DNA of 64,000 nt, from positions 62,001 to 126,000 of the forward strand of contig JAQYWR010000011.1 of NCBI GenBank assembly GCA_029379225.1, given 5' to 3'. A program made the translations under genes and the position numbers. Under the pieces are notes generated by a model. It worked only from the letters and a program-made list of their open reading frames with translations. It was not told the origin of the DNA and did not search any database. This stretch comes from Nostoc sp. S4 (GTDB lineage Bacteria; Cyanobacteriota; Cyanobacteriia; Cyanobacteriales; Nostocaceae). Shown in pieces: positions 34,861-41,879 of this stretch (position 1 is the stretch's first letter; every line of letters begins with the position of its first letter).

Positions 34861-35468
34861 ATTTTTTGGTTTTAAATAATGATATATCTCAATTATAAAT
34901 TTAGCTTTTACCTCTTACATAAATTTTGGCGATTAATATTTGTCATGCATGAGGTAACAGATACACAAAGAGGAAATAGATGCTTATATATTTGGCAATT
35001 AATAAATTTATTTATTCTCAAACTTTAACTCATAACTCCTATACAGACAAGGGTTAATCGCATCTACTCCTAACAATCTAGATTCCTGCAAACCATTCAT
35101 AACCCAGATCCTCTCAATAGCCTTTAAAAGGAGATAAATAACTAGTCAATGTAATTTTTGTCATTTTGCAAATGACTAATGAACAATACTTCGACTCCCT
35201 TCCCTATGGGACGCTCTTGCTAGCTTGCTTAAGAGCAGGGCTACGACTACGCTCAGGGCAAGTCGCTCAGTACAAGTGACCAATGACAATCTTGACAGAA
35301 AATATTGCAATAACTCAGTGCATAGCTTGTACTGAATTTTAGCCTGATTTGGTACTAGTTTTTTACAAAGTTCTAATACAAGGAGTGAGGGGAAGAGTTG
35401 CTGCAACTTCCCGTATATTCTCCTTAAAACGAGGATTCGAGTATTCAATATGACTTTTACAATATCCT
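34861..35468. other. Repeat-bearing spacer
   Basis: The 608-bp spacer precedes pyrF-pyrE and faces the end of the FtsK-fusion gene. It has tacagacaagggttaatcgc (35042-35061), whose inverse complement recurs near 43915-43934, and a variant of the modular repeat at 35180-35290. Short frames here are not gene-like. Confidence 0.5.
35180..35290. repeat. Modular intergenic repeat, variant inner block
   Basis: The outer parts match the family (gaacaatacttc at the left, aagtcgctcagtacaagtga at the right). The inner block is different: tatgggacgctcttgctagc and ttgcttaagagcagggctac, shared with the MITE-like element at 8365-8536. Confidence 0.7.
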
Positions 35469-38045
35469 CTATGCTGATGGCAATTGAATATTTTTAATAA
35501 ATAAGCTTTGTAAGCGGTGCATTTGAGACCCTATTTGGTGTAGTAAATCGCCTTTGCCTAGTAGATAAGCTGCTGCTGTATGTTTTCCGCCCAAAACAAT
35601 AGCTGAGTCTGCTTCACTCGCGGTACGTAGAGCAACTCGTCCTGGTAGATTTGAGCGGATTATCGGTGTAACAACTTTTGCTTCTGGGCGTTGAGTGGCG
35701 ATAATTAGATGAATTCCAGCGGCTCGTGCCATTGCTCCGAGTCGTTTAATACTTTGTTCTAGTGATGTGCGGGCTTCTTTTTCTGCCATAAAGTCGGCAT
35801 ATTCATCAAAAATGCAGACAATGCGAGGTAAAAGCTGAGTGGAGCGTTGATTGTAAGTATTTAAATCGGCACACGCAGCTTTTTCAAAGTGATGGTAACG
35901 CGATTCCATCTCTGCGACCAATTCTTCCATAAGTTTAATGGCGCGATCGCTATCTTTAACAACTGGCGAATACAACCAGGGCATTTTTTCAAACTCTGGA
36001 AATGTGACTCGCTTGGGGTCAACTAGAGCGATTTTCAGATGTTGCGGAGAATGGCGATATAGTAAGCTCAGGAGGAGCGATCGTAAAAATTCACTCTTAC
36101 CGCTACCAGTTGTACCACCAACTAAAAAATGACAAGTATTCGCATCAGATAAATCAGCTTCTACCAATTCTCCTTCAATACTCACCCCAATCGCAATTTT
36201 TATAGGTACTGCTGGAGGTAAAAATTGCGGCTGAATATACTTTTCAAAATTCGCAATTTGCCTATCTGGACGCGGCAAATCAATGCTGACATAACCAGCT
36301 TGCGGTGCAATTAACGGCGGATTTGCTAACCCCATCTGCACTTGTAAATCTGCTGACAATTTTAATAGGGCATTAATTTTCACACCTAAATGAGGTTTGA
36401 GTTTCACCCGAATAAAAGCCGGTCCAACAGCAGCACCATGATAGTCTACACTAATGCCAAACGATTGCAAAGTCGTAACCAAATCTTCACCAATAGCATC
36501 AGCATCAACAGAATTTATTTTTGTGGAGTCGGCATCTTGCCTGCCATTATTCTCATCTTTAAATGGTAAATTAGATGCTGAAATCACAACAGTTGAAGGA
36601 AAAAAAGTCTGACATTTTTGCTGTTGTGGACAAATTTTACATAGATAAGGCTGAGTTGTTGGCGGTGGTGAATTGGGATAAGGTGATTCCCAAGTCAGCC
36701 ATTGTTGCATCTGGTGTAATTTATAGGGAATCAACTGATGCACTGTATTTTCTAGCTGTTCCCAAGAATATTGATACTCTTTAAACTCTGGCAAAACACA
36801 ATAAACTGCCGAGTCAACTGCTACCTTTTTTTGATGCCAAAGCATATAACTATAAAGAGCAACTTGAGCCAATTGTGCTGATGGATCTACTGGCTGATAA
36901 GTTTTAAATTCAAGTACACACAAACGTTTAACTTCACAATTATAAACCAAACAATCAAATTCACCTCCTACCCTTTGTTGTGTGCCATCAGGTAGCTGAA
37001 AATAATGCTCAAGCTTACGTTCTTGAGAAACAAAAGTATTGCGAATAACTACTTCTGCACTACAATAACGTCGATTGACAACAAGTAATTCTGCAAAGCG
37101 TCTGATTAATCCTTGTAATCCTTGCCAAACTTTGTATAATGGTTGCGCTGTACTTGGATTTTGTTCAACAGTTTTTTCTAGATAAGTAGAAAATTTAATT
37201 TCATAAAAAAGCTGTTGAAGATGAGATGCAATCTCATTAATATTTAATTGAGATGTACTATTTGTGAATACTTCTTGGAATCTGGACTCACTAATAGCTA
37301 ACTTAATAAAACTATCCGCTAATTGATGAAAGCTATTACCAATACCAATTTGATTATCTGGTGGTATGAATAAAGTATTACCACCAAATTTTTGATGTAA
37401 ATAAAACAACCGGGGACATTCAAAAGCGACTCTGACTTTAGTAGCTGTTAAAGATGTATTTTTTGAATCATCAGGCATAATATTAAAAATATTAGTTACA
37501 AAATTAGGATTATAAATTTTTAATAAACGGCGATGAACAGCAGCCAAATAGACTGTATCCATAGCCGCATAATGTAGCTGCTTGTCACTCAGAGGACGCT
37601 TTCCCCAGTCACTTCTACCTTCTTCTGTATCTACATCGGAAAATTGGCAAAGTTCTGTTGCTAGAGTTTTTAGTTTTAAATTAGATGTTTGTAATGTTTT
37701 AAGGCTAATTTTTCTTGCTAGCTTGAGGGTACAGGTAATATTTTGTGCAGACTTGTCACCCAAGTATTTTAAATCAAAACTTGCATTGTGAAATACTTTC
37801 TCAATTTGAGAATTAACCATAATTTGGTGAATAAAGAATGCAATCAAATCAGGTCGATCCAACACATCGAGAATATAAGCAAATTTTCCTGTAGAATCTG
37901 TAGGTTCTGCTAATATTTGAATTAATGATAGTTTGGGATATGGAGTATTCCAATTAGCTACTTCTGTATCTAGCCATAGCACTTTAGCCAAGGCGAATTT
38001 TGTAATTTGGTTCTGTATTTCAGCAAATTCTTTCAAGTAGTGCAT
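35469..38045 (-). CDS. DEDDy exonuclease / PD-(D/E)XK nuclease / FtsK motor fusion
   Basis: This 858-residue protein joins three parts. Residues 1-180 are an RNase D-like 3'-5' exonuclease (LDTE, Asp26/Glu28; NASFD, Asp91; Y159-x3-D163). Residues 200-485 look like a Cas4/AddB-type PD-(D/E)XK nuclease (Asp364, LEFK with Glu379/Lys381) with Cys210, Cys469, Cys472 and Cys478 placed to hold an iron-sulfur cluster. Residues 520-858 carry the FtsK alpha domain and RecA-like motor (GGTTGSGKS 643-651, IVCIFDEYAD, IIATQRPEA). FtsK membrane and gamma parts are absent. It probably moves along DNA and degrades it. It starts 21 bp after the ATPase gene, as third gene of an operon. Confidence 0.85.
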   Translation of the reverse strand: MHYLKEFAEIQNQITKFALAKVLWLDTEVANWNTPYPKLSLIQILAEPTDSTGKFAYILDVLDRPDLIAFFIHQIMVNSQIEKVFHNASFDLKYLGDKSAQNITCTLKLARKISLKTLQTSNLKLKTLATELCQFSDVDTEEGRSDWGKRPLSDKQLHYAAMDTVYLAAVHRRLLKIYNPNFVTNIFNIMPDDSKNTSLTATKVRVAFECPRLFYLHQKFGGNTLFIPPDNQIGIGNSFHQLADSFIKLAISESRFQEVFTNSTSQLNINEIASHLQQLFYEIKFSTYLEKTVEQNPSTAQPLYKVWQGLQGLIRRFAELLVVNRRYCSAEVVIRNTFVSQERKLEHYFQLPDGTQQRVGGEFDCLVYNCEVKRLCVLEFKTYQPVDPSAQLAQVALYSYMLWHQKKVAVDSAVYCVLPEFKEYQYSWEQLENTVHQLIPYKLHQMQQWLTWESPYPNSPPPTTQPYLCKICPQQQKCQTFFPSTVVISASNLPFKDENNGRQDADSTKINSVDADAIGEDLVTTLQSFGISVDYHGAAVGPAFIRVKLKPHLGVKINALLKLSADLQVQMGLANPPLIAPQAGYVSIDLPRPDRQIANFEKYIQPQFLPPAVPIKIAIGVSIEGELVEADLSDANTCHFLVGGTTGSGKSEFLRSLLLSLLYRHSPQHLKIALVDPKRVTFPEFEKMPWLYSPVVKDSDRAIKLMEELVAEMESRYHHFEKAACADLNTYNQRSTQLLPRIVCIFDEYADFMAEKEARTSLEQSIKRLGAMARAAGIHLIIATQRPEAKVVTPIIRSNLPGRVALRTASEADSAIVLGGKHTAAAYLLGKGDLLHQIGSQMHRLQSLFIKNIQLPSA

Positions 38046-38066
38046 TGGCTAAAATTTTATCAACAG

Positions 38067-40091
38067 TTATCTATGAGCCACTAAACAAATTAATTGGTCT
38101 TGCAGTTTAGCTTGCGTGTCAATAATTTTCACTTTTCTTTCCTGACATAATAGATTAATTAAATGCTGAGTATCAGTTTCATTTACAGAAGGAAATTGAC
38201 TACCAGCCTCCTTAATTAAAGTTGGTACTCCCATAAATATTTGGGTTTTTACTAAATTTAATAAAAAATCTTTTACTGGTCGCAAATCTATAATTCTCGG
38301 ATCTGGATCGGGTTTTTGCTTAGTAACAATTCTTAAATCTTGTAATAAAGTACATTGTTCCAAAATTTTTGACTCACGGATTAAAGATTTTAGTGCAAGT
38401 AAAGTAATAGTTTTACCAGCAATAACTAATTCCTGAGCAAGTGCAGAATTAACCAAGCTATGGTATGTCGCTAAGTAGTGAACTGAAGCAAGATTTGGTT
38501 TAATGTGAATATGCTTAGTGCCAGTGAAAATCTGACTATAGATTTTATATCCAGCGAGTTTTGCATTTCCTACACTTCCAATTCTAATTAGATATAGCCT
38601 TTGACAAACATTTTGTTGAATAGTTTTTTGACAAGCGTTCATCACATTAAAAAAACTTCTCATATTACCATCTTCTGTCCAGACTATTCCTACATTTTCT
38701 TGTTTAGATGGCAGTTGATAACTTAGTGAATAGCTTGCATAAGCTCCAGTGATGAGTTTAGGTTTAATTGCCTGTACTTGTAATGCTTCTAAAGCTTCTT
38801 GCACCATCCTGATGAGATCGGGTGCTGCTAGAAGAGAGATTTTATCTATCTTAGTCTGAACTTTTTTATACTCTTGCTGCCATAGCAATTGAAATTCAGC
38901 TTGTTCTCTTTCTTGTTCAGTAAGTTGACGCTTTTTACCAAGTGTGTTAGGCTCATCAATCAATGAAAGTTTATATTCCTGATACTCTAATCTGCCAAGA
39001 ACAAACGCATTTCTTGGCATAGTTTTACTACCAGGAAAATTTTCATCTAATAATTGTCTCTTCAAAGGAAAAATAGGTGAATCAGGTTTAGGATTTGCTT
39101 CTTGATGTAGAGGTTGTAATCTGTAAGCCCAAAGTGCTTCTGCTTGAGTAAAATCAATGGATTTTAGTGATATCAATCGCTCTATTCTGGCTTTGTCTGA
39201 CTGTTGAATGTAACGATAACTTTGCTTCCAGCCGTTGGTAACTATACTGATGATAATGAGAAAATTTTTCAGATTTTCACTGTGAATAGTAGTATTTATA
39301 TTAAATAAAGCTTGAGGATTAGAAGGCCAACTTGGCAGTGTTTCAACTTGGTCAAAGCATAAAACAATCGGTTGAGTCGCAGTAGAAATTTTACCAAAAT
39401 TAGCCAAAATATTCTTTGCTGCGTCTTCTACATCAATGCAGTGTTTAAGTCTCAAAGCTTGCATTGATTCTTCGCTTAAATTATCTCCTCTTAACCATTC
39501 ACAGGCTAAAGGGTACAGTTCTGGATCAGTCAGATCGTGTAATACTCCAAAAAAAATATCAGGATTATAGATACCTGTTTTTAAATAGGTCTTTTTAAGA
39601 TGGTTAATAAACTTTTGGCGATCGCCTAATAATAATTGCCAAAAGCTATCATTAAAAAGCTGCTTTTTTAGATTAGTTTTTGTGAACACAGATAAATTTT
39701 TCAGCCACAGTATTAACTGAGAGTCCTCCTGTCCTTCTGGTACTTGAATTAAACTATCAACTGTATTCCTTAGCACATGACGCCACATATAATCGTTATC
39801 AACCCAAGGCCCTATATAAGCAAAGAAAGCTTTTGAGTTAAAGGTGCGTTTTAACCTACCTAAAAGATAGCTTTTGCCAGAACCAGAATCACCTACAAGT
39901 AAAACAGTACGACTACCATTATCTGTAGTTACTAAATTGAGAAATCCTTCAATTTCTGTGATTGCCTCTTGATGAATTGACTCAACTATAGACTCTAATT
40001 CATGATTTTGACCCCAAAAATTACCCGTCCTCAAATTTACTAGGTCAAACGGGTTAACCTCGCGTTTAATAATATCGTTGATAGATGCCAT
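38067..40091 (-). CDS. Large P-loop ATPase of FtsK-nuclease operon
   Basis: The 674-residue protein has Walker A GDSGSGKS (67-74) and Walker B IVLCFDQVE (242-250) in an Orc/STAND-like AAA ATPase domain. An arginine-finger-like segment follows (KARIERLISLKSID), then FPGSKTMPRNAFVLGR. A charged helical region at 385-440 leads to an alpha/beta domain (430-590) I cannot name. The last 65 residues look like a winged helix (LLNLVKTQIFMGVPTLIKEA). Such ATPases load or gate DNA-processing partners; no family name is certain. The gene lies 55 bp after the winged-helix gene and 21 bp before the FtsK-fusion gene. Confidence 0.75.
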   Translation of the reverse strand: MASINDIIKREVNPFDLVNLRTGNFWGQNHELESIVESIHQEAITEIEGFLNLVTTDNGSRTVLLVGDSGSGKSYLLGRLKRTFNSKAFFAYIGPWVDNDYMWRHVLRNTVDSLIQVPEGQEDSQLILWLKNLSVFTKTNLKKQLFNDSFWQLLLGDRQKFINHLKKTYLKTGIYNPDIFFGVLHDLTDPELYPLACEWLRGDNLSEESMQALRLKHCIDVEDAAKNILANFGKISTATQPIVLCFDQVETLPSWPSNPQALFNINTTIHSENLKNFLIIISIVTNGWKQSYRYIQQSDKARIERLISLKSIDFTQAEALWAYRLQPLHQEANPKPDSPIFPLKRQLLDENFPGSKTMPRNAFVLGRLEYQEYKLSLIDEPNTLGKKRQLTEQEREQAEFQLLWQQEYKKVQTKIDKISLLAAPDLIRMVQEALEALQVQAIKPKLITGAYASYSLSYQLPSKQENVGIVWTEDGNMRSFFNVMNACQKTIQQNVCQRLYLIRIGSVGNAKLAGYKIYSQIFTGTKHIHIKPNLASVHYLATYHSLVNSALAQELVIAGKTITLLALKSLIRESKILEQCTLLQDLRIVTKQKPDPDPRIIDLRPVKDFLLNLVKTQIFMGVPTLIKEAGSQFPSVNETDTQHLINLLCQERKVKIIDTQAKLQDQLICLVAHR

Positions 40092-40146
40092 AATTAATTA
40101 AAATGATTGAGCAAACTTAATTTGGATGAAAAAAGTGTGTGTATTG

Positions 40147-40980
40147 TTAGTTCATAGTGATAAAGAACAACGAACCACCCACCTTTTGTAAAATTCCAGC
40201 ATCAATTTGTTCTGTATTGTAGGGTGTCGGGTCTAATAGAGAACTCAAATCAATTTGATCGCTCGCTTGCAAACGATATAAAGCCTTATCTAATTCATCT
40301 CGTGAGAATGGCGGTTGTAATTTTTCCCGCAGATGGAAAATGGGCAAATAATTGTCAGTACCCAATTCTTGGTCTAATTTCTCAATAATTTGTAAAATTT
40401 CTTCATCACTGATTTGTTTATCAGGGATATTGACGGTAGGTAGCGCAGTAGAAACTTCCTCTGGCTTCACCCGCACAGCTTTTCGTAAAAAGCGTAGGTA
40501 ATTACCCAGCAATTCCAAGCTGATGGCGGGTTGAACACCTTTGTTAGGGCTGTAATCATCCCGTAAATACTCAATTCCTCGTTGAGTTAGCCAAACTTCA
40601 GGTTGTATCCTTTTAATTCCTCGTTCAGCTTCAATCAAACCCCGATCGCTCAACACCTCCAATATCGCATCTCGTTCCGCAGCTTTTGGTGAAGTAATTT
40701 TGCTGGGAGCGATTTTACCCGAAGCTTTACCGATTTTCTCTAATACCTTGAGTTCTTTATCTGCGATGGGTACTTCGCCGGGATTTTTGAGTACGGCTTG
40801 ACCAGGCGGTAAAATTTTAACTGTGGTAACCTCGCGGGTATAGTCTACCAGTTCGCGATCGCCCAATTCTTTACAAATTTTATTTTTCTCAGTTTTAAAA
40901 CTATCAAAGGCATTAAGCCCTGCTCGATAATCGGTAAATCCCAATAACTTTAAGAGAAACTTTAACTCTTTAGTATCCAT
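40147..40980 (-). CDS. Tandem winged-helix protein, first gene of FtsK-nuclease operon
   Basis: The product of about 277 residues is rich in helix-turn-helix-like segments: LKFLLKLLGFTDYRAG, then ADKELKVLEKIGKASGKI with ILEVLSDRGLIEAERG, and near the end FHLREKLQPPFSRDELDKAL with YRLQASDQIDLSSL. This suggests at least two or three winged-helix domains, as in DNA-binding or kleisin-associated (kite-like) proteins. I recognise no named family. I favour the ATG at 40980 (MDTKELKFLLKLLGF); an ATG at 41043 would add 21 residues. No Shine-Dalgarno decides. It is followed by the ATPase gene after 55 bp. Confidence 0.65.
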   Translation of the reverse strand: MDTKELKFLLKLLGFTDYRAGLNAFDSFKTEKNKICKELGDRELVDYTREVTTVKILPPGQAVLKNPGEVPIADKELKVLEKIGKASGKIAPSKITSPKAAERDAILEVLSDRGLIEAERGIKRIQPEVWLTQRGIEYLRDDYSPNKGVQPAISLELLGNYLRFLRKAVRVKPEEVSTALPTVNIPDKQISDEEILQIIEKLDQELGTDNYLPIFHLREKLQPPFSRDELDKALYRLQASDQIDLSSLLDPTPYNTEQIDAGILQKVGGSLFFITMN

Positions 40981-41151
40981 GCCAGTAGTTTTACCTGTAT
41001 GTGAATCAGCAATACTGTAGCTTGAAGATAAAAATTTACACATCTTTTATCGTAGCTATAATTAGTGCGAATGACTACAGGTTGTTAAGCAATATATTAC
41101 AAGCAGCATCTAGCTGAATATTGATACTTTTAAAACTTGATACTTTGCAGA

Positions 41152-41421
41152 CTAGACAAGTGGATAGAATTTTCTCAATGCTTGGACGAACTTTGCTTCA
41201 ACAGCTTCCAACTCCTGTTGAGGTATAGCATCCAAGTGTTCAGAAGTTTCCCAACGAATGATAAAAATAACTTCTCAAGGGTCGTTGGGGTTGAGCCAAA
41301 CCTCTTTACCAAGAAATCCAGGATACTTAGCCATTGCTGTTGTCCAAATTTCTGCATCTTTGTGGATAAAATTTTCCTGTAAATCAGAGGCAACTTTAAA
41401 CTTGAGGAGTTCTATAAACAC
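41152..41421 (-). pseudogene. TIGR03792-like protein, interrupted by TGA
   Basis: Read from a GTG at 41421, the frame gives FIELLKFKVASDLQENFIHK, then MAKYPGFLGKEVWLNPNDP, a TGA at 41275-41277, and EVIFIIRWETSEHLDAIPQQ to the stop TAG at 41152. Apart from the TGA the 89-codon frame is intact. The conserved pattern agrees with the small cyanobacterial TIGR03792 family, related in fold to antibiotic-biosynthesis monooxygenases. A nonsense mutation is the simplest reading. A sequencing error is possible; selenocysteine is unlikely since no SECIS-like stem is visible and family members have ordinary residues there. Confidence 0.75.
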
Positions 41422-41555
41422 ATCCTTTGATGCCTGTGTTCACGAATTTGCCAAAATAGAGCTGTAGGCTAGAATAACTAGGCTCTCAGCATAGCTCGAT
41501 CGCCTAACTCAGGAGTAAGGGTCGGTTGGTTTGAAATAAGTAAGAGGAAGGGAGT

Positions 41556-41879
41556 ATGGACAGCAACAACTGGTTGCAACAATTAATGATGGTGGGTCTT
41601 GGTACAACGTCTTTAGTAGCAGAAAAACTGCGGCAAGTCAGCGATGATTTAGTTAAAGACGGTAAGCTTAATCCCGAACAAGCCAAGGCTGTTATAGATG
41701 ATATTGCCCAGCAGTTAAAGTCGGAGCAAGGAAACTGGGATGCTCAAATGCAACGCCAAATGCGAAATATGATGCAGGATTTTGGGGTGGCTCGGCAGTC
41801 GGAAGTGGACGAACTTCGGGGTAGAATTGACCGTTTAGAGCGTCAAGTGCGCGATTTAGAAAATAAGCTTTGGCGTTAA
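41556..41879 (+). CDS. Phasin-like coiled-coil protein
   Basis: The 107-residue protein resembles the small phasin-like or polyhydroxyalkanoate-granule family proteins common in cyanobacteria. It has an N-terminal hydrophobic stretch (LQQLMMVGLGTTSLVAEKLR), a middle helix with DGKLNPEQAKAVIDDIAQQL, and a C-terminal heptad coiled coil (SEVDELRGRIDRLERQVRDL). The true role in granules is unproven; many such proteins occur in strains without PHA. A purine-rich aggaagggagt precedes the ATG. The FKBP gene starts 78 bp downstream on the same strand. Confidence 0.8.
   Translation: MDSNNWLQQLMMVGLGTTSLVAEKLRQVSDDLVKDGKLNPEQAKAVIDDIAQQLKSEQGNWDAQMQRQMRNMMQDFGVARQSEVDELRGRIDRLERQVRDLENKLWR

What the first reader, a model, noticed from the sequence alone, without database searches (positions are those of the whole stretch)
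35469..40980. Candidate undescribed DNA-processing operon: winged-helix + P-loop ATPase + nuclease-FtsK fusion
Three compact same-strand genes (gaps 55 and 21 bp) encode a multi-winged-helix protein, a 674-residue ATPase with intact Walker A and B, and a protein with two nuclease domains on an FtsK motor. It has the recogniser-loader-motor/nuclease logic of anti-invader or chromosome-processing systems. I cannot place it in BREX, DISARM, Wadjet, Gabija or HerA-NurA by domain content. Its location between repeat-rich spacers and a pseudogene fits an accessory region. Housekeeping roles such as recombination or segregation remain possible.
Basis: partly seen in the sequence, partly recalled or inferred. 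Interest (0 to 1): 0.85.

Follow-up and report, generated by a model that had tools for sequence, protein, structure and literature searches.

The report
Cyanobacterial ORC-FtsK-nuclease operon (capture type)
Three neighbouring genes of a cyanobacterium encode a DNA-binding protein, an origin-recognition-like ATPase and a DNA pump carrying two nucleases; the set is old and often lost, and fits a kind of predicted anti-invader machine that was described by computation in 2024 and, as far as was found here, not yet tested.

Summary
WH (40147-40980), ORC-like ATPase (38067-40091) and a DEDDy-exonuclease/PD-(D/E)XK/FtsK fusion (35469-38045) form a compact minus-strand operon; 63 of 78 named loci from one scan keep all three complete in order. 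Key catalytic residues of both nucleases and the motor are almost invariant. "Intact Walker B" is half right: the ATPase's catalytic glutamate is Q/N/H in 91 of 91 copies, with an acid two residues later in 90.

"Undescribed" does not hold: Rakesh, Aravind & Krishnan 2024 (PMC10853773; section 22 read) describe "HerA/FtsK capture" operons with this parts list as predicted anti-invader systems. PADLOC gives no convincing match for ATPase or WH.

Best reading: an FtsK motor, targeted by ORC/wHTH proteins, degrades intercepted foreign or segregating DNA. Against typical defence cargo: the fusion tree broadly follows taxonomy, the locus sits beside core genes, often ParA, and is repeatedly lost. 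Segregation or repair stays open. At E<=1e-15 this genome's only detected FtsK motor is this one; 13 of 29 genomes searched (window's included) have none.

The parts
40147..40980 (-). WH protein, 277 aa, three winged-helix-like units; predicted DNA-recognition subunit
   Evidence: start by alignment; AlphaFold2 model pLDDT 72, pTM 0.43; no PADLOC or NCBIfam hit, no Pfam hit above cut-off, one weak PHROG of unknown function (7.6e-4)
38067..40091 (-). ORC/Cdc6-like AAA+ ATPase, 674 aa, predicted loader/switch
   Evidence: model pLDDT 85.8, pTM 0.86; 14 of 16 Foldseek hits at E<=0.001 are from ORC/Cdc6-containing or MCM-loading entries, 2 are p97
39870..39893 (-). ATPase Walker A (GDSGSGKS, aa 67-74)
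   Evidence: G67, G72, K73 in 90 of 91 rows, the other row a gap
39342..39368 (-). ATPase Walker B (aa 242-250, IVLCFDQVE); catalytic Glu position is Gln
   Evidence: position 248 Q46/N43/H2 of 91; D247 in 88 of 91; acid at 250 in 90 of 91
38439..38825 (-). ATPase alpha/beta domain aa 423-551 with REase-like order of elements but no D..ExK: candidate inactive REase
   Evidence: secondary structure of model, residue conservation of 436-505; fold of the isolated domain not searched
38082..38282 (-). ATPase C-terminal winged-helix-like segment (aa 604-670)
   Evidence: secondary structure of model
35469..38045 (-). Exonuclease-nuclease-FtsK fusion, 858 aa
37518..38021 (-). RNase D-like DEDDy 3'-5' exonuclease domain (aa 9-176)
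   Evidence: PF01612 7e-25; D26 E28 D91 69/69 and Y159 D163 70/70 of rows with the region
36609..37451 (-). Cas4/AddB-like PD-(D/E)XK nuclease domain (aa 199-479) with four conserved cysteines
   Evidence: PF12705 1e-10; D364 E379 K381 C210 C469 C472 C478 71/71 in named loci; 30 of 31 for D364 and K381 in the unnamed set, the exception being L070
36273..36527 (-). FtsK alpha domain (aa 507-591)
   Evidence: PF17854 2.7e-9, above cut-off; only match in the genome
35496..36206 (-). FtsK/SpoIIIE motor (aa 614-850)
   Evidence: PF01580 9e-42 over 614-787, phmmer to solved FtsK-type translocases to residue 850; Walker A/B residues 66/66 of rows with the region

Best explanation
The operon encodes a nuclease-armed DNA translocase of the ORC/CDC6-coupled 'HerA/FtsK capture' kind. 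Inferred working: the WH protein and the ORC-like ATPase (its own C-terminal wHTH included) bind a particular DNA structure, site or protein on target DNA. The ATPase acts more as an ATP-gated clamp or switch than a fast hydrolase, because the Walker-B glutamate is Q/N/H. It places the FtsK ring on double-stranded DNA; the ring pumps DNA past the nucleases on its N-terminal side, where the PD-(D/E)XK domain cuts and the DEDDy exonuclease trims 3' ends. The likely targets are plasmid, conjugative or phage DNA while it is replicated, segregated or packaged. Shown here: gene set, order, domain content, near-invariant catalytic residues, ORC-like fold of the model, dispensability, repeated loss. 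Inferred: complex formation, DNA loading, degradation, target, defence function.
For: 63 of 78 named loci keep WH-ATPase-fusion complete. Catalytic residues are kept: of those tallied in 71 rows, H240 departs once and N87 twice. In the unnamed set one row of 31, L070, has lost H240, D364 and K381 of the PD-(D/E)XK part, but the same gene cluster has a stand-alone PD-(D/E)XK protein with H, D, (D)xK and all four cysteines (L070:4925-5788): the nuclease seems needed. The ATPase model gives mostly ORC/Cdc6 top hits; BrxC, TnsC and plant NLRs follow at E 0.0025-0.006. FtsK alpha and motor are present and no gamma domain is found, so DNA reading would have to come from partners. The WH model has three wHTH-like units. 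Rakesh et al. 2024 predict these parts together as anti-invader. Dispensable: fusion in 8 of 53 genus genomes, deletion scar in G233. A three-gene set whose fusion lacks the exonuclease domain is on a conjugative plasmid of Pseudanabaena PCC 7367. ATPase 58.6% and WH 65.1% mean pairwise identity against 81.8% for the motor in 59 intact loci.
Against: I found no experiment on any member. The fusion tree broadly follows cyanobacterial families and the locus is fixed beside core genes: ParA within about 5 kb in 41 of 67 loci with an FtsK match. Both are unlike typical defence cargo. WH diverges hardly faster than the nuclease domains (65.1% against 66.8% and 68.6%), so 'rapidly evolving recogniser' is not clearly shown. 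No modification gene is in the operon, so self/non-self discrimination is unexplained.
Confidence: 0.6

Rival explanations
1. A lineage-specific, non-essential chromosome- or replicon-maintenance machine: in a genome with no other FtsK motor detected, the ORC-loaded FtsK-nuclease helps clear or process unresolved DNA during segregation, together with the neighbouring ParA.
For: ParA within about 5 kb downstream of the fusion in 41 of 67 loci, 26 within 400 bp; HSDR_N-ParA-like matches in 7 of 67 loci and ParB_N-SAP genes near some; tree broadly follows taxonomy; the window's genome has no other FtsK motor at E<=1e-15 (69 of 85 first-look candidates scored).
Against: ParA is present in 53 of 53 genus genomes while the fusion is in 8, and in the window's genome ParA is on another contig (C90); 13 of 29 genomes show no FtsK motor at that threshold, so the function is not generally needed; two active nucleases are unusual for segregation (recalled).
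Confidence: 0.25
2. A DNA-end-processing or recombination/repair motor (RecBCD/AddAB- or HerA-NurA-like in role), using a Cas4/AddB-type nuclease plus 3'-5' exonuclease on a translocase.
For: PDDEXK_1 with four invariant cysteines (C...CxxC...C) and DEDDy exonuclease on one motor.
Against: Patchy and repeatedly lost; FtsK-type motor, HerA profile DUF87 below cut-off (18.9 against 23.2 bits); ORC/WH partners not known in end-resection systems (recalled).
Confidence: 0.1
3. A phosphorothioate-linked restriction module of SspFGH/DndFGH type.
For: PADLOC SspH model matches the FtsK part (3.3e-67).
Against: The match covers only the C-terminal FtsK region; no SspF/SspG model hits ATPase or WH; the ATPase is not SspF-like (hhalign prob 2.2 against one SspF, P-loop only). 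No ssp/dnd gene was noticed in the operon; the flanks were not scanned for them. A real SspFGH in G150 is recognised by the same library.
Confidence: 0.03

Closest known systems
ORC/CDC6-coupled HerA/FtsK capture systems (Rakesh, Aravind & Krishnan 2024, PMC10853773, section 22)
   Same: ORC/CDC6 ATPase with a further domain before a C-terminal wHTH, active REase, FtsK motor with FtsK-alpha, 2-4-wHTH protein, 3'-5' exonuclease fused to the motor
   Different: Its main text holds no word beginning 'cyanobacteri', 'cas4', 'recb', 'addb' or 'pddexk' (term searches), so this nuclease type is not named there; it calls the neighbourhoods mobile, whereas this one is mostly vertical; multi-wHTH protein and exonuclease are given as features of 'a subset' and 'others', here both occur. 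Figure 7 itself and supplement not seen
SspFGH / DndFGH
   Same: FtsK-type motor with nuclease and accessory ATPase/wHTH proteins
   Different: SspH of G150 is 1815 aa, its match to the fusion limited to the FtsK end; SspF and SspG not found here
Cellular FtsK/SpoIIIE
   Same: FtsK alpha and motor domains (Pfam; phmmer to FtsK 2iuu 3.6e-48)
   Different: no gamma-domain hit and no membrane-domain hit; two nucleases replace the N-terminus
Sister cyanobacterial operon WH + ORC-like ATPase + DUF1802/Mrr_cat nuclease
   Same: ATPase homologous over 547 columns (hhalign 99.4%, E 6e-22); same gene logic (Mrr_cat match weak, 16 against cut-off 21 bits)
   Different: no FtsK; FDE Walker B in 5 of 5 rows; nearly universal in the genus (48 of 53)

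Membership tests
ORC/CDC6-coupled HerA/FtsK capture system | ORC/CDC6-clade AAA+ ATPase | tested here: met
   Foldseek with model: 14 of 16 PDB hits at E<=0.001 are from ORC/Cdc6-containing or MCM-loading entries, 2 are p97; TM-scores are low (about 0.2-0.46)
ORC/CDC6-coupled HerA/FtsK capture system | inactive REase between AAA+ core and C-terminal wHTH | tested here: inconclusive
   alpha/beta domain 423-551 lacking D..ExK, then wHTH-like 604-670; isolated domain not searched by fold
ORC/CDC6-coupled HerA/FtsK capture system | active REase (PD-(D/E)XK) | tested here: met
   D364, E379, K381 in 71 of 71 rows; one degenerate fusion, L070, has a stand-alone nuclease with the motif beside it; which of the paper's two REase families is not known; no activity tested
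ORC/CDC6-coupled HerA/FtsK capture system | HerA/FtsK motor, one set with FtsK-alpha | tested here: met
   PF01580 and PF17854 above cut-off
ORC/CDC6-coupled HerA/FtsK capture system | protein with 2-4 wHTH units (subset) | tested here: met
   three units in model, modest confidence; kinship to DndG/SspB/FokI not shown: no PDB hit at E<=0.001
ORC/CDC6-coupled HerA/FtsK capture system | 3'-5' exonuclease fused to the motor (subset) | tested here: met
   PF01612 7e-25, DEDDy residues in all rows with the region
ORC/CDC6-coupled HerA/FtsK capture system | mobile gene neighbourhood | tested here: inconclusive
   one plasmid copy and repeated loss, but tree broadly follows taxonomy and the site is fixed
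ORC/CDC6-coupled HerA/FtsK capture system | anti-invader activity | not testable with these tools
   no experiment found for any member (paper searches)
SspFGH / DndFGH | SspF and SspG (or DndF/DndG) partners | tested here: not met
   no SspF/SspG/Dnd model among PADLOC hits of ATPase and WH; hhalign against one SspF 2.2%; profile-profile comparison with DndF/DndG not run
BREX / DISARM / Wadjet / Gabija / HerA-NurA | matches to PADLOC protein models | tested here: not met
   WH none; ATPase only weak (mad8 0.005, others weaker); fusion by its FtsK-, Cas4- and exonuclease-like parts (best HerA 2.8e-11, mad8 7e-29, BrxHI 2e-9). BrxC is among weak fold hits (0.0025)
Canonical FtsK/SpoIIIE | membrane domain and gamma domain | tested here: not met
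   neither among Pfam hits at E<=1

The most novel reading that the evidence does not exclude
An ancient cyanobacterial replicon-surveillance machine, often held beside ParA: an ORC-like ATPase naturally lacking the Walker-B glutamate acts as an ATP-locked clamp that hands segregating or incoming DNA to an FtsK pump armed with an Fe-S-type PD-(D/E)XK nuclease and a DEDDy exonuclease, removing plasmids or unresolved DNA. It would be inherited vertically, and its sister (WH-ORC-Mrr) is nearly core in the genus.
Probability: 0.25. Interest if true: 0.7.

Novelty: new member of a known kind. Interest (0 to 1): 0.45.

Why it matters
The kind has been predicted but, as far as my searches show, not tested. 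This operon is compact (three genes), has its catalytic residues intact, occurs in filamentous cyanobacteria some of which can be manipulated genetically (recalled), and has natural lost and broken alleles in close relatives. That makes the capture hypothesis, and the segregation alternative, directly testable. The family-wide loss of the ORC Walker-B glutamate is a concrete biochemical prediction.

Tried and rejected
Considered and rejected: SspFGH/DndFGH membership; BREX, Wadjet, Gabija, HerA-NurA; canonical FtsK; the lack of the operon in G233 as a naive empty site: G233 keeps the last 21 codons of the FtsK part, so it is a deletion. Fifteen fusion-less genus genomes have the c11 gene (window 41556-41879) and ParA as neighbours 1.2-1.8 kb apart, without operon remnant at tblastn E<=1e-3. 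Those 15 are of 45 fusion-less genomes, picked because searches put FKBP and ParA close on one contig; of the other 30 only G233 was examined. That c11-operon-ParA was the ancestral order, later emptied, is my inference; independent insertion at one site is not excluded by it.

Led nowhere: search of the PDB by sequence with the ATPase (0 hits); Foldseek with the WH model (nothing at E<=0.001); literature searches (0 papers). The genome-contig scan returned only the nearest 80 of 204 stretches, and all 78 loci are cyanobacterial by their titles or by the tree's labels, so it says nothing on other phyla. The rows 'next to fusion' hold some genomes twice, so its Walker counts (2 of 100 read FDE there, found by a text pattern without alignment) are replaced by the aligned, named set; the two FDE readings were not traced. 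A PADLOC scan of neighbours was prepared but not run, so enrichment of defence genes nearby was not tested.

Counting notes: of 78 named loci the 15 not complete are L088, L112, L118, L129 (FtsK lost or displaced), L095 (fusion gone), L146 (split), L137 (no exonuclease domain), L140 (no WH found), L149, L150, L152, L159 (no fusion), L115, L135, L142 (contig ends). L161 is counted as complete although its WH ORF is cut by the contig start. L116 and L117 are two contigs of one assembly with identical fusions. The 67 are loci with an FtsK match by tblastn. ORFs in the Python calls come from a simple caller of mine, not an annotation.
Full report
What is there. The window is G000:C43:62001-126000 of a 7.66 Mb genome; the named rows nearest to it in the fusion tree are Nostoc and Desmonostoc. 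On the minus strand three genes lie head to tail: WH (40147-40980 after start correction), ATPase (38067-40091) and fusion (35469-38045), with gaps of 55 and 21 bp. The fusion carries an RNase D-like exonuclease, a PD-(D/E)XK nuclease, FtsK-alpha and an FtsK motor.

Are the parts working? I aligned the window's fusion with 70 relatives from the named loci (ORFs over 400 aa with a PDDEXK match). D26, E28 and D91 are present in all 69 rows that reach that region, Y159 and D163 in all 70. D364, E379, K381 and the four cysteines C210, C469, C472, C478 are in 71 of 71; H240 is in 70 of 71 and N87 in 67 of 69. FtsK Walker A and B residues are in all 66 rows that have the motor. The same cluster there has a stand-alone PD-(D/E)XK protein upstream of WH (L070:4925-5788) with H, D, DxK in place of ExK and all four cysteines. 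That reads as a shift of the cutting job to a separate protein and suggests that the activity matters. The four cysteines resemble the Fe-S arrangement of Cas4/AddB (recalled; no cluster was tested).

The ATPase. The AlphaFold2 model (pLDDT 85.8, pTM 0.86) has an AAA+ core (about 1-376), an alpha/beta domain (423-551) and a C-terminal winged-helix-like segment (604-670). Of 16 Foldseek hits at E<=0.001, 14 are from ORC/Cdc6-containing or MCM-loading entries and 2 are p97; BrxC, TnsC and plant NLRs follow at 0.0025-0.006. TM-scores are low (about 0.2-0.46), so this says clade of fold, not close kinship. In Walker B the position after the aspartate is Q in 46, N in 43 and H in 2 of 91 rows, never E; D or E stands two residues later in 90 of 91. 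A cruder pattern count on an overlapping set gave 2 of 100 with FDE, not traced. The sister family has FDE in 5 of 5 rows. The later acid could take over, as in NACHT-type Walker B (recalled), so slow hydrolysis is a prediction only.

The WH protein. The model shows three wHTH-like units at modest confidence. No solved structure matches at E<=0.001.

Conservation of the set. A genome scan with the ATPase alignment gave 78 loci in named cyanobacteria (the best 80 of 204 stretches). 63 have WH, ATPase and complete fusion in order. A variant WH-ATPase-ATPase without the fusion occurs in L149, L150 and L152 and in L066 and L068; L137 and L144 carry both forms side by side. A conjugative plasmid of Pseudanabaena PCC 7367 carries the three genes, its fusion without the exonuclease domain.

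Dispensability and descent. In the genus the fusion (E<=1e-100) is in 8 of 53 genomes, one broken (G234, 496 residues then stop) and one without a match to the first 137 residues (G008). The orotate-pathway gene is in 51 and FKBP in 53 of 53. G233 lacks window 35527-41124 but keeps the gene's last 21 codons: a deletion. In 15 of 15 examined fusion-less genomes the c11 gene and ParA lie 1.2-1.8 kb apart with no remnant; these 15 were chosen for that closeness. In other genera the operon often lies directly before ParA: within about 5 kb in 41 of 67 loci, within 400 bp in 26. The fusion tree (67 rows; quick method, 31 of 63 inner branches starred, 16 open) groups broadly by family to the eye, with exceptions (Richelia with Plectonema, Calothrix brevissima with Nostoc carneum, Anabaena among Dolichospermum); it was not tested against a species tree. 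Together: old, mostly vertical, repeatedly lost. ParA itself is in 53 of 53 genus genomes, so it does not depend on the operon.

FtsK background. At E<=1e-15 the window's genome shows one FtsK motor, this one (69 of 85 first-look candidates scored); 13 of 29 searched genomes show none; several others have a different, weaker-scoring 725-743-residue one. FtsK-alpha in this genome is found only here.

What is known. PADLOC has no match for WH and only weak ones for the ATPase (best E 0.005); the fusion's best hit is SspH over the FtsK part only. True SspFGH in a relative is recognised by the same library, so the library works. Rakesh et al. 2024 (abstract, passages by term and section 22 with its figure legend read) describe neighbourhoods with ORC/CDC6 ATPase, an inactive REase before its wHTH, active REase, HerA/FtsK with FtsK-alpha in one set, a 2-4-wHTH protein in a subset and a 3'-5' exonuclease fused to the motor in others. 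They propose interception of invader DNA during segregation, transfer or packaging. The 2026 BREX paper (PMC12839542; passages only) repeats the idea. Neither main text holds a word beginning 'cyanobacteri'. I saw no experimental test of this kind in the listings; most subscription-journal papers and all bioRxiv preprints are outside that library.

Judgement. What it works like: a capture-type, nuclease-armed translocase (0.6). Membership: the tested protein-level features are met except the inactive REase, which is inconclusive; the 'mobile' feature is inconclusive, with evidence against it. Hence new member of a known kind. Results against defence (fixed site, broadly vertical tree, WH hardly faster than the nucleases) keep a segregation role alive at 0.25.

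Noticed in passing
L054-L058 (e.g. L055:8947-13158); G000:C89:58875-60707: Sister operon: WH + ORC-like ATPase (FDELD-type Walker B) + DUF1802/Mrr_cat-like nuclease, in 4 of 5 loci beside the same genes (mutM- and psaE-like by eye, mdh-like in 3); ATPase in 48 of 53 genus genomes including the window's.
   Followed up: partly
L070:4925-12873: G028: the fusion's PD-(D/E)XK part has lost catalytic residues while a stand-alone 287-residue PD-(D/E)XK protein with them lies upstream of WH.
   Followed up: partly
L152:10048-12281 and L149, L150, L157, L158: A ParA-type ATPase fused to a type I restriction HSDR_N-like domain (weak, 21.5 against a cut-off of 25 bits) next to a ParB_N-SAP protein, near the WH-ATPase operons; domains tested in L152, the others by eye.
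   Followed up: partly
L149, L150, L152, L066, L068, L137, L144: WH-ATPase-ATPase operons with two tandem ORC-like copies and no FtsK fusion directly behind; their output is unknown.
   Followed up: partly
window 41158-41454: ABM-family pseudogene with two in-frame stops; an open 113-aa version lies in L060.
   Followed up: yes
window 35081-35164: Remnant (last 28 codons) of a molybdopterin oxidoreductase gene that is whole in G233 between operon site and the orotate-pathway gene (Pfam of a relative).
   Followed up: yes
L080:7554-9953 and L081:7542-9947: Nostoc plasmid proteins annotated as exonucleases with a distant (22-23%) match to the window's ATPase; L081 lies near DUF262/DUF1524 genes.
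   Followed up: no
L053:1279-12460 and L052: L053 (G150): SspFGH with a DndA/SspA-type cysteine desulfurase (PADLOC). L052 (G041): similar-looking genes, its SspF-like part fused behind protein-kinase-like domains (by eye).
   Followed up: partly
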